Positions 17,507 through 20,021 of a DNA stretch of 64,000 nucleotides are shown one piece after another; position 1 is the first letter of the stretch, and every line of letters begins with the position of its first letter. Where the stretch lies: positions 2,294,001 to 2,358,000 of the forward strand of contig NZ_CP076019.1 in assembly GCF_018623055.1 (NCBI RefSeq), read 5' to 3'. This DNA comes from Halorubrum sp. 2020YC2 (GTDB lineage: Archaea > Halobacteriota > Halobacteria > Halobacteriales > Haloferacaceae). The notes below the pieces were generated by a model. The model saw only the letters and a list, made by a program, of their open reading frames with translations, did no database searches and had not been told where the DNA came from. A program made the translations under genes and the position numbers.

Positions 17507-17667
17507 GGCGCCGAACCAGTAGCGCGCCGCGTTCGCGGCGCTCGCGGTCCGATTCTGCGGTCTCGTTCGTCTCGAAGAGCGGTCGCTCCGCCGTTCGGTC
17601 CAGTTGATTGACTTACCGACCCGACTCGTGAACCGCCTCGGGGTCAAGCTCCGAGGCTTCCCGTGGA

Positions 17668-18942
17668 TCAGTCGGACACTCCCGCGACACCATCGGTCTG
17701 ATAACCTCGAACGGTGTCGTGGGTCACGGTCGGGGCGTCCACGGCCCCCGATGCCTGCCGTCGCACCTTTCGCACCGTAGGAAGGCTGTTGAGAACAGGC
17801 ACATTCCAATCGAGTTTCTTGATTCCTTTCACAGCGATGTTGACGCTTACACCACGGTCGCTGTGGTCTTGATGACCGCACGACCGACACTTGAACCGCT
17901 TCTTGTTGCGGTTCGCACGCTCCGTATGACCGCACATCGGACACCGCTGACTCGTGTACTCAGGGTTAATCCACGCGGTCGGAATACCCTCGAACGCCGC
18001 CTTGTACGACGTATAGAACTGGAGGGCGCGGAACGGGAGGTGGTGCAAGCGTCGGTTCATCCGCGTGCCGTAGTCGATACTGTCGCGCACCTCTTTGAGG
18101 TCTTCAAAGACGATACACGGCTTGTCGAACTGATGACTCCAGTCCACGATGTGTCGAGACACCTTGTGGAGTCGGTCACAGATAAACCGTCCCTCGCGCC
18201 CTTTGAGTGTATCGTGGATGCTATCTTTCCCCGCGTTCTGGACACGCTTTCGCATCGTGAAGTAGCGATGGCGCTCGAACTTGATTTCGGGGAAGTCGAT
18301 GACGAGCGTGTCTTCGACGCCATCCTCGGTGAGTGCGGTGAGGGCCACGTTATCCTCGTTTACGTCTACGCCGATGATCGTCCGGGAGTCCTGTTTGTCT
18401 CGAACAGTTTGCTCGGTGTTGGTGACGTTGATGTGCAACTCAGCGGTGTCGTTGTGGAACAAGGCTTCTGCTGTCCCAATTTTCCACTCGTCACTTTCGA
18501 GTGCGGTCTTGAGGATGTCGAGGTGGGCGTCACTTCCTTTGAGGACTCCCTTGACGTGTTTGTACGGCTTCGCGCTGATCCGAAACGCCACATCACCATC
18601 GTCGGTGAGAGACAGATTGTACCCTTCCTCGTAGTTCGCACGAAGCGGATACGCACCGTCTTTGGTATGACTCGGGTGGCCGAAGTCGTCGTACTCGTAG
18701 TAGTTCTCCATCGCCCCGAGTGCCTTCGAAACGACGCGCTGTGTCGTGTTTTTCACGAGGTTGGCGTCGTCAGCCACGCTGTCGGGGATCGCGTCCCAGT
18801 CCACGCCTTCTTTGGCGAGCCTGATGGTTTCGTTGTACACCGAGCGGGCTTCGAGTGTGGCGTCGTACAGCAGACTCTCGTTGTCATTCTGGATGTCGAG
18901 TTGGAAGTCCAGAGTCTTGATGAGAGCCTGTGAGTTGGTCAT
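17668..18942 (-). CDS. tnpB: TnpB RNA-guided endonuclease (IS200/IS605 OrfB)
   Basis: 424 residues. TnpB is a compact RuvC nuclease guided by a short RNA made from the element end, and the ancestor of Cas12. RuvC acidic residues are all present: Asp193 (IIGVDVNEDN), Glu280 (CIVFEDLKEV) and Asp362 (DHSDRGVSVNIA). A zinc ribbon with Cys334/337/352/355 (CPMC, CRSC) lies between the last two. The N-terminal 180 residues form the RNA- and DNA-binding part. Its ATG overlaps the stop of the DUF2080 gene (ATGA). The guide RNA would run off the left end, from the tnpB 3' region through the hairpin at 17636-17656. It appears intact although tnpA is not. Confidence 0.95.
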   Translation of the reverse strand: MTNSQALIKTLDFQLDIQNDNESLLYDATLEARSVYNETIRLAKEGVDWDAIPDSVADDANLVKNTTQRVVSKALGAMENYYEYDDFGHPSHTKDGAYPLRANYEEGYNLSLTDDGDVAFRISAKPYKHVKGVLKGSDAHLDILKTALESDEWKIGTAEALFHNDTAELHINVTNTEQTVRDKQDSRTIIGVDVNEDNVALTALTEDGVEDTLVIDFPEIKFERHRYFTMRKRVQNAGKDSIHDTLKGREGRFICDRLHKVSRHIVDWSHQFDKPCIVFEDLKEVRDSIDYGTRMNRRLHHLPFRALQFYTSYKAAFEGIPTAWINPEYTSQRCPMCGHTERANRNKKRFKCRSCGHQDHSDRGVSVNIAVKGIKKLDWNVPVLNSLPTVRKVRRQASGAVDAPTVTHDTVRGYQTDGVAGVSD

Positions 18943-19094
18943 TCTTTGTCTTGTCCAGTGGCTTCCGAGATTCGGACGACTTTCACATCAGCCCCACGCC
19001 AGCGTTTGGGGACGGTGACGTGGGCGCTATTCCCGAACGGCTTGACCTCGCCGTCGAGAACTTCCTCGCCGTCGATTTCAAAGCGGTTCGCCAT
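18939..19094 (-). CDS. DUF2080 transposon-encoded small protein
   Basis: 51 residues, MANRFEIDGEEVLDGEVKPF, then GNSAHVTVPKRWRGADVKVVRISE. The second part resembles an AbrB/SpoVT-like swapped-hairpin DNA-binding segment. This protein is common in haloarchaeal IS605-type elements just ahead of tnpB, with which it overlaps by four bases (ATGA). Its role is unproven; control of tnpB or tnpA expression is a reasonable guess. The promoter is shared with the divergent tnpA: TATA-like ATATCC and GGATAT stretches lie at 19102-19117. Confidence 0.88.
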   Translation of the reverse strand: MANRFEIDGEEVLDGEVKPFGNSAHVTVPKRWRGADVKVVRISEATGQDKE

Positions 19095-19147
19095 ACTCGA
19101 GTATATCCTTTGGATATAGTTAACTGTGCCGGAGACGTGTTCTCAAT

Positions 19148-19546
19148 ATGGGTGAGAAGCGGTCGAACCACACGGTGTACAACGTCAAATACCATTTCGT
19201 GTGGTGTCCGAAGTATCGACACGCGATACTCGAACCAAATGAAGATTCGCTGGTAGCGAGTTTCCGTGACGTGTGTGATGAGTACGGCTACGAGATATAG
19301 TCGCTCCACATCTCGCCCGACCACGTACACCTGTTCCTCTCTGCCCATCCGAAGCACGCACCGAGCGAGATCGTGCGAACAGTCAAGAGCATCACGGCAC
19401 GAGAGATGTGGGAATAGCACGAACCGTTCTTGGAAGAATATCTGTGGGGCGGTGGCTTCTGGGAACAGTCGTACTACATCGGAACGGCGGGAGAGGTATC
19501 CAGCAAGACAATTGAACGGTATATTGATCGGACAGAACACGTCTGA
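19148..19546 (+). pseudogene. tnpA: TnpA (IS200-like Y1 transposase) with two in-frame amber codons
   Basis: The reading frame encodes a complete 132-residue HUH/Y1 transposase (KYHFVWCPKYRH near the start, HUH motif in SPDHVHLF, catalytic Tyr region EQSYYIGT), but TAG codons occur at 19298-19300 (codon 51) and 19415-19417 (codon 90). Both sit where a CAG (Gln) codon would give natural-looking sequence (YEI-Q-SLHISPDH; MWE-Q-HEPFLEEY), so each needs only one C-to-T change. The catalytic residues lie after the first stop, so the product should be inactive. Lack of other frame damage suggests recent inactivation. Confidence 0.9.
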
Positions 19547-19592
19547 GTGTCGGCTTCACTCTCGGGGTCAAGCCCCGAGGCACTCGCCTTGC

Positions 19593-20021
19593 TTATCTGT
19601 AGAACTCCTCGCGATAGACGCGTCCGAAGGCGTTGCGGCGGAGGGTGCTGGCGGCCGCGTCCGGCTCGTCCTGATACGTCGCCGCGACGACGGTGTCCGC
19701 GAAGGGGATCGGGTGCCACACCACGTTGTCGACGTTGTCGGAGCCGATCCGCACCACGTCCTCGTCGTCGAACCCGCTGTCCGCGAGCCACTCGTCGAAC
19801 TCGGCCGACTGACCGACGTGGACCGCGAGCAGCTCCGCGAACGTCGCGTCGCGCGCGGTCCGGATCACCTCGGGCGTGACGCGCTCGTCGTACTCGTCGG
19901 CGTCGAACGACATCGCCTTGGTCGCCTCGCGGACGACGACCTGCGCGACCGGCCCGACCTCCTCGTAGCGTTCGAGCGCCTCGGCTCGCGTCTCGGGTGC
20001 GAACGTGCCTCTGGTCTCCAT
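19593..20021 (-). CDS. DUF5809 family protein
   Basis: 142-residue soluble, acidic haloarchaeal protein of unknown function, METRGTFAPETRAEALERYEEVGPVAQ onward. Conserved-looking core: VVREATKAMSFDADEYDERVTPEVIRTARDATFAE, and a C-terminal basic RRNAFGRVYREEFYR. The family name is from memory of haloarchaeal annotation and should be treated as probable. The DUF5810 gene lies 36 bases upstream on the same strand, so the two form an operon. The IS element ends within about ten bases of the stop codon but has not cut the gene. Confidence 0.75.
   Translation of the reverse strand: METRGTFAPETRAEALERYEEVGPVAQVVVREATKAMSFDADEYDERVTPEVIRTARDATFAELLAVHVGQSAEFDEWLADSGFDDEDVVRIGSDNVDNVVWHPIPFADTVVAATYQDEPDAAASTLRRNAFGRVYREEFYR

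What the first reader, a model, noticed from the sequence alone, without database searches (positions are those of the whole stretch)
19148..19546. Two CAG-to-TAG stops in an otherwise perfect tnpA beside an intact tnpB
The Y1 transposase frame is uninterrupted by indels, keeps its HUH and Tyr motifs, but has TAG at 19298 and 19415, both explained by single C-to-T changes from Gln codons. The tnpB and DUF2080 genes are intact. The element probably cannot move itself, while TnpB, an RNA-guided nuclease, may still be kept by selection or be acting in trans with another tnpA.
Basis: seen in the sequence. Interest (0 to 1): 0.5.

Follow-up and report, generated by a model that had tools for sequence, protein, structure and literature searches.

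The report
Broken transposase beside intact TnpB nuclease
A small jumping gene in a salt-loving archaeon has lost its jumping enzyme through two stop codons but keeps an intact-looking RNA-guided DNA cutter and its guide RNA, which is common in this family of elements and therefore ordinary.

Summary
In detail: tnpA (19148-19546, +) has TAG at codons 51 and 90, no indel, and keeps its catalytic residues; DUF2080 and tnpB are intact. Two details are wrong. Codon 51 is Leu in 48 of 54 relatives, so only codon 90 fits CAG-to-TAG. The gene is not otherwise perfect: three more private replacements include Asn at an Ile kept by 48 of 48 relatives. Empty sites in sister species define a 1971-nt IS605-type element without target duplication in the 3' end of a DUF5809 gene. 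An omega-RNA match (Rfam sot2652, below its cut-off) ends 16 nt outside the element, as a guide would. No amber-suppressor tRNA or PylS was found. Losing tnpA while keeping tnpB is common here: 22 of 50 close tnpA rows but 42 of 66 tnpB rows are full-length without stops. Disrupted tnpA is in print for Haloquadratum (PMC3119063). A more interesting by-product is a 54-nt twin-hairpin repeat found at the same tnpA codon in several lineages.

The parts
17628..19599 (-). whole IS605-type element, left end at 19598/19599, right end at 17628/17629 (one ambiguous G; 1971 nt)
   Evidence: empty site in sister species, ten loci aligned, no target duplication; relatives' similarity starts near 17628
19148..19546 (+). 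tnpA, Y1 HUH transposase pseudogene; TAG at 19298 (codon 51) and 19415 (codon 90)
18939..19094 (-). DUF2080 small protein, intact; overlaps the start of tnpB by 4 nt
   Evidence: PF09853, E 8e-7; coordinates
17668..18942 (-). tnpB, intact, with the Asp/Glu/Asp residues of RuvC (named from recall) and zinc-finger cysteines in the aligned stretches
   Evidence: PF07282; alignment to solved Cas12f/TnpB chains
17612..17804 (-). omega-RNA (Rfam sot2652); its last 16 nt (17612-17627) lie outside the element and are the predicted guide
   Evidence: 32.7 bits, E 9.2e-5, full model length, below the curated 61 bits; element edge
19561..19599 (-). left end with subterminal hairpin
   Evidence: sequence; the same hairpin in relatives and in remnants of this genome
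17628..17667 (-). right end with subterminal hairpin
   Evidence: sequence; relatives
19599..19603 (-). target/TAM 5'-TCTAC next to the left end (its last base shares the one-nt ambiguity of the element edge)
   Evidence: empty site; several relatives match exactly through 19603
19593..20021 (-). DUF5809 gene whose last codons are replaced by element sequence
   Evidence: PF19125; empty sites show the native 3' end

Best explanation
This is an IS605-type element (divergent tnpA and DUF2080-tnpB, IS608-like layout) that inserted into the 3' end of a DUF5809 gene. Its Y1 transposase gene was then inactivated by two nonsense mutations, so it can no longer excise or transpose on its own (inferred). 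The tnpB gene and its omega-RNA are still intact. The expected activity is that TnpB, guided by the 16 nt next to the right end, cuts an empty allele of this same site carrying TCTAC plus the guide match, which favours copying the element back and so keeps it in the population. The two stops are recent decay, not a functional recoding. Loss of tnpA with tnpB and omega-RNA kept is a common fate in this family. Shown: anatomy, stops, empty site, family pattern. Inferred: loss of transposition, TnpB cleavage and its role in retention.
For: Two TAG and no frameshift. Conserved Leu and Gln columns are hit, and private replacements exceed private synonymous changes, 5 to 1 with the stops counted, against 7 to 7 in tnpB. 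No CTA anticodon among 45 read, no PylS over the cut-off. Intact tnpB with catalytic residues in alignment. Omega-RNA match ending 16 nt beyond the edge. An 18-mer holding the guide matches only its own place in the genome within 2 mismatches. Of 80 tnpB-anchored relatives, 29 have an intact tnpA and 58 an intact tnpB. In searches anchored on each gene separately, 22 of 50 tnpA rows and 42 of 66 tnpB rows are full-length without a stop, Fisher p 0.04 (counts typed by hand). Omega-RNA in 9 of 9 tnpA-less loci (of 25 such) and 9 of 9 tnpA-intact loci (of 29 such) that were scanned. Same phenomenon in print for Haloquadratum, with disrupted tnpA 15 of 15 and 16 of 17 (PMC3119063, passages).
Against: Pairwise dN/dS of the window's tnpA against 52 relatives is low (median 0.078, lower than tnpB's 0.130), so the sequence carries little trace of long relaxation: the stops are recent, or could in principle be tolerated. 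The private count is too small to test (3:1 without stops versus 67:51 in intact relatives, p 0.64). Disrupted and intact tnpA copies together also do not differ significantly (68:33 versus 67:51, p 0.13). The omega-RNA score is below Rfam's cut-off. The pattern is not universal: PMC3119063 gives 0 of 3 tnpA disrupted in Natronomonas, and in Haloquadratum tnpB is mostly disrupted too. That paper also saw strain-specific insertions although all tnpA copies of one strain were pseudogenes, so immobility is not certain (passages).
Confidence: 0.86

Rival explanations
1. The TAG codons are read through (suppressor tRNA, pyrrolysine or leaky termination) and a full-length TnpA is made at low level.
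For: Frame otherwise uninterrupted, catalytic residues kept, low dN/dS. In-frame substitution stops without frameshift recur in relatives (4 of 80 loci).
Against: No CTA anticodon among 45 read from 46 tRNA hits; one hit (L245) gave no anticodon. No PylS over the cut-off. The stops replace Leu and Gln at conserved columns and are private to this copy apart from one TAG at codon 90 in a degraded fragment, L071. Relatives' stops lie at several different codons (19, 23, 29, 88, 90, 100).
Confidence: 0.04
2. The element is still mobilised in trans by another Y1 transposase.
For: Two uninterrupted Y1 genes exist in the genome; short copies of this family's terminal hairpin sit at three other places; PMC3119063 reports movement despite pseudogenised tnpA (passages).
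Against: Those Y1 proteins are 28-30% identical, and their 3.4-kb loci lack this family's terminal hairpin in a pattern search. Only one full copy of the element is in the genome.
Confidence: 0.08
3. TnpB has been taken over by the host for a regulatory or defence role and tnpA loss was selected.
For: tnpB and omega-RNA outlive tnpA in many relatives.
Against: The ten sister-species loci fetched here lack the element at this place, so it is not a conserved host locus. The guide matches the element's own empty site and no other locus within 2 mismatches. Nothing seen here points to a host function.
Confidence: 0.04
4. Sequencing or assembly error at both sites.
For: Reads are not available here.
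Against: Two independent substitutions plus private missense changes, and no indel, in a single-contig 3.06-Mb genome at 98.5% completeness.
Confidence: 0.03

Closest known systems
IS200/IS605 family, IS605 subgroup with divergent tnpA and tnpB (IS608-like layout, recalled); haloarchaeal IS605-type transposons of PMC3119063 (passages)
   Same: Y1 HUH transposase frame, TnpB, subterminal hairpins, no target duplication, insertion next to a short fixed target
   Different: tnpA carries two stops; a DUF2080 gene overlaps tnpB; target 5'-TCTAC
TnpB-reRNA (ISDra2) RNA-guided nuclease, PMC8612924 (passages seen)
   Same: intact RuvC residues in alignment, RNA covering the tnpB 3' end and right end with about 16 nt of flank as guide, TAM beside the left end
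   Different: activity not tested; only distant sequence similarity to solved TnpB/Cas12f chains (best E 5e-16)
Rfam sot2652 sense overlapping transcript; haloarchaeal omega-RNAs in PMC12558985 (abstract seen; that the two are the same thing is recalled)
   Same: full-length model match in the same place, in the window and 18 of 18 relatives scanned
   Different: all score (29-51 bits) below the curated cut-off of 61
Disrupted tnpA and terminal-only PATEs of Haloquadratum walsbyi, PMC3119063 (passages seen)
   Same: tnpA mostly disrupted by stops, frameshifts or deletions; small repeats inserted in such elements; terminal-only remnants
   Different: there tnpB is mostly disrupted too; here it is mostly intact

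Membership tests
IS200/IS605 (IS605 subgroup) | Y1 transposase with HUH and catalytic Tyr | tested here: met
   PF01797, 124 bits; His59/His61 and Tyr109/110 kept; the gene is interrupted by two TAG
IS200/IS605 (IS605 subgroup) | subterminal hairpins near both ends | tested here: met
   hairpins at 17628-17667 and 19561-19599 by reading the sequence
IS200/IS605 (IS605 subgroup) | insertion without target duplication next to a short fixed target | tested here: met
   empty sites in sister species; TCTAC shared
IS200/IS605 (IS605 subgroup) | able to excise and insert as single-strand circle | not testable with these tools
   needs experiment; predicted lost
TnpB-omega-RNA nuclease | RuvC Asp/Glu/Asp and zinc finger | tested here: met
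   alignment to solved chains, PF07282
TnpB-omega-RNA nuclease | guide RNA from tnpB 3' end and right end with about 16 nt of flank | tested here: inconclusive
   sot2652 match 17612-17804 ends 16 nt beyond the edge, but scores 32.7 bits against a curated 61
TnpB-omega-RNA nuclease | TAM-dependent cleavage | not testable with these tools
   needs assay
Amber-recoded gene (pyrrolysine or suppressor) | CTA-anticodon tRNA or PylS in the genome | tested here: not met
   none among 45 anticodons read of 46 tRNA hits; PylS model 25 bits versus cut-off 178
CGTC-tagged REP dimers (for the 54-nt twin hairpin in relatives; PMC3733652, passages) | 8-9 bp stem, 4-5 nt loop, CGTC or variant at one end, 3-bp tail, inverted dimers, no dedicated transposase | tested here: inconclusive
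   8-bp stems, CGTY at most outer ends, TGA tails meeting in TGATCA, inverted pair; but loops are 3 nt, and a dedicated transposase was not sought
SMR-A small mobile repeats (for the 54-nt twin hairpin; PMC3119063, passages) | about 110 bp, inverted ends, no target duplication, inserts into near-terminal palindromes of IS605-type elements | tested here: not met
   length 54 nt, not about 110; the other three features fit at some or all sites, so it behaves like one

The most novel reading that the evidence does not exclude
Loss of tnpA in this family is not only neutral decay. A 54-nt twin-hairpin repeat, a haloarchaeal relative or analogue of CGTC-type REP dimers with variable 3-nt loops, repeatedly enters the same codons of tnpA (53, 70), the same codon of tnpB (394) and the terminal hairpin loops of IS605 elements, mostly at a G|C step, and so helps to turn self-moving elements into stationary TnpB-omega-RNA units. 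The window's TAG pair would be one further route to the same end state.
Probability: 0.35. Interest if true: 0.5.

Novelty: new member of a known kind. Interest (0 to 1): 0.27.

Why it matters
As given, the finding is one more stationary IS605-type element with a live-looking TnpB. It is useful mainly because the empty site in sister species gives exact ends, target and guide, so TnpB-driven retention can be tested at a real locus. The side lead matters more: a very small palindromic repeat sits at one codon of the transposase gene in several separate lineages across Halobacteria, which would make the question of how such tiny repeats move testable in a small, well-defined target.

Tried and rejected
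NCBIfam scan of the proteins failed because one query held stops and was not repeated; Pfam and the own-genome Y1 search had answered the question. A scan of viral contigs for the twin hairpin found 0 exact matches. The idea that codon 51 TAG is a scar of the codon-53 insert was dropped: the nearest relative has TTG at codon 51 and the window sequence holds no leftover hairpin there. Translational bypassing of the twin-hairpin inserts (as in mitochondrial byps, recalled) was considered because the inserts are 45, 51 or 54 nt and in frame. It cannot be shown here, and private replacement:synonymous counts in insert-bearing copies (17:15 with a stop in the insert, 12:4 with an open insert) do not differ clearly from intact ones (67:51; not tested separately). 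Whether other strains of the same species share the TAG codons could not be checked, because one genome per species is held.

Limits of the counts. The counts were typed by hand from the printed rows at 75% identity or more, with the two halves of an interrupted gene merged (three cases) and contig ends not set apart. One search's list was cut off at weak matches, so short tnpA fragments may be missing; one search used E 1e-100, so short tnpB fragments are missing too. The 80 loci were the best 80 of 116 found through tnpB, so the 29 versus 58 is biased towards intact tnpB. Of the 53 twin-hairpin sites, part comes from loci fetched because they encode this tnpB, so the share inside IS genes is biased upward. 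In the first tree count two rows that also carry the twin hairpin in a broken tnpA (L082, L122) were not labelled. Relabelled, the count falls from 7 changes for 7 rows to 6 for 8 rows (L122 added; at least 5 forced by well-supported branches; 30 of 500 shuffles as low) or 7 for 9 rows (both added), so not each row is a separate event. L082's site is odd: one flank is that of codon 53, the other that of codon 70.

Full report
Observation. The frame 19148-19546 (+) reads as a Y1 transposase of 132 codons with TAG at codons 51 (19298) and 90 (19415) and no indel. The Y1 family has three matches in the genome; this one scores 124 bits with two TAG inside, the others 139 and 136 bits without stops. 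His59, His61, Tyr109 and Tyr110 are kept. On the other strand DUF2080 (18939-19094) and tnpB (17668-18942) are open, overlap by 4 nt and match their Pfam families.

Codon-level comparison with 54 relatives shows Leu, not Gln, at codon 51 (48 of 54; 2 not covered) and Gln at codon 90 (50 of 54; 1 not covered). The nearest relative, the tree sister of the window copy (L091; support 99/94), has TTG at codon 51, so the first stop is best read as a change from a Leu codon, not C-to-T from CAG. The gene is also not otherwise perfect. Among 49 rows it has five private non-synonymous codons, the two stops included, and one private synonymous codon; Ile31, kept in 48 of 48 relatives, is Asn. tnpB has seven and seven among 68 rows. 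These numbers are too small for significance. Pairwise dN/dS is low for both genes (medians 0.078 for tnpA and 0.130 for tnpB over 52 relatives), which suggests that the stops are young.

The element. Ten sister-species loci were fetched on the strength of flank matches. All ten have the DUF5809 3' end without the element, and eight of the ten also match the window's upstream flank. The element is 1971 nt, either 17628-19598 or 17629-19599, with no target duplication. On the minus strand it lies after 5'-TTCTAC and before GAGTC; several relatives match exactly through TCTAC. It sits in the last codons of a DUF5809 gene, whose product now ends EEFYR. Only one full copy is in the genome; four short matches lie elsewhere. 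Three of these (contig positions 698436, 859440, 1982763) carry the family's terminal hairpin, and those at 859440 and 1982763 look like terminal-only remnants; the fourth (359558) does not carry it.

TnpB and its guide RNA. TnpB aligns to solved Cas12f and TnpB chains through the RuvC residues and the zinc finger. Rfam's sot2652 covers 17612-17804 (-) over the full model, 32.7 bits, E 9.2e-5, below the curated cut-off of 61. It ends 16 nt outside the element, as expected of an omega-RNA with its guide (ISDra2 reRNA, PMC8612924, passages; haloarchaeal omega-RNAs, PMC12558985, abstract). An 18-mer holding the guide matches nowhere else in the genome within two mismatches. The expected target is therefore the element's own empty site; cleavage and retention are inference.

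Is TAG read? ARAGORN read 45 anticodons from 46 tRNA hits and none is CTA; one hit (L245) gave no anticodon. The PylS model gives 25 bits against a cut-off of 178; in the 14 control genomes it rings in 13 and exceeds the cut-off in 1, so a weak ring means little. Mobilisation in trans by the two other Y1 proteins is unlikely: they are 28-30% identical, and a pattern search found no such terminal hairpin in their 3.4-kb loci.

The family. Of 80 loci found through tnpB (the best 80 of 116), tnpA is intact in 29, absent within 3 kb or at a contig end in 25, broken or partial in 10, stopped by a substitution in 4, stopped inside an insert in 8, and carries an open insert in 4; tnpB is intact in 58, partial or split in 14, stopped in 8. 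That sample is biased to tnpB. Anchoring each gene separately in 170 family genomes, at 75% identity or more, 22 of 50 tnpA rows and 42 of 66 tnpB rows are full-length without stops (p 0.04; rows typed by hand). sot2652 is found in 9 of 9 tnpA-less and 9 of 9 tnpA-intact relatives scanned, always below its cut-off. Dyall-Smith and colleagues (authors recalled) reported disrupted tnpA in 15 of 15 and 16 of 17 copies in two Haloquadratum strains, but 0 of 3 in Natronomonas (PMC3119063, passages). The finding is therefore an ordinary instance of a described pattern.

A lead outside the finding. Several relatives carry in-frame inserts of 45-54 nt in tnpA or tnpB. The commonest is 54 nt: two hairpins with 8-bp stems and variable 3-nt loops meeting in TGATCA or a near variant, mostly bounded by TCGTY...RACGA. 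It occurs at tnpA codons 53 and 70, at tnpB codon 394 in the other orientation, and inside terminal hairpin loops. On the tnpA tree the rows with the codon-53 insert need 7 changes as first labelled (7 rows), 6 for 8 rows with L122 added (at least 5 forced by well-supported branches) and 7 for 9 rows with L082 added too. Gains and losses cannot be told apart, and the tree is weakly supported overall, but one inheritance does not explain the spread. The pattern occurs in 26 of 170 family genomes with one mismatch allowed and 59 of 391 class genomes exactly, with no match of the reversed control pattern in the rows printed. At 53 distinct sites the bases around the insert are G|C in 44; 21 sites lie inside tnpA or tnpB, 8 beside such a gene, and 24 have none of the 17 query proteins within 0.9 kb. 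It resembles the SMR-A repeats of PMC3119063, which target IS605 palindromes without duplication but are about 110 bp, and the CGTC-tagged REP dimers of PMC3733652 (passages), where the search term 'halo' found no occurrence. Five literature searches touching these subjects listed no paper that I recognised as describing this 54-nt repeat, but only listings, abstracts and passages were seen. The window's own genome holds one copy (contig position 1759240).

Noticed in passing
L029, L034, L039, L056, L069, L070, L076, L077, L088, L097, L122 (tnpA codon 53); L063, L088 (tnpA codon 70); L060, L082, L083, L088, L121, L133 (tnpB codon 394); own genome contig position 1759240: A 54-nt twin-hairpin repeat with variable 3-nt loops, inserted at recurrent sites of IS605 genes and in terminal hairpin loops; 59 of 391 class genomes, G|C at 44 of 53 sites.
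   Followed up: partly
L055, L063, L076, L124 (tnpA codon 23, 51 nt); L074, L108 (tnpA codons 19-21, 45 nt): Two further twin-hairpin insert types with different stems in the same tnpA, some open in frame, some carrying a stop.
   Followed up: no
own genome contig positions 698436, 859440, 1982763 (L005, L006, L007): Short copies of the element's terminal hairpin; two look like terminal-only remnants, one of them next to TCTAC.
   Followed up: partly
window 18939-19094 (-): DUF2080 gene overlapping tnpB by 4 nt; 31 of 80 tnpB relatives have it in the fetched stretch at 60 bits or more. A DUF2080 protein is named among antitoxins in PMC10440598 (passage), so a role in restraining TnpB is conceivable.
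   Followed up: no
L065 and L081 tnpA codon 100; L061 and L080 tnpA codon 19: Different relatives with single in-frame stops at the same Trp codons (TGA at 100 in two, TGA and TAG at 19), without frameshift.
   Followed up: no
window 19593-20021 (-): The DUF5809 protein has lost its native last residues and gained one from the inserted element.
   Followed up: partly
L082 tnpA: A twin hairpin whose one flank is that of codon 53 and the other that of codon 70, as if two inserts had recombined and deleted the codons between.
   Followed up: no
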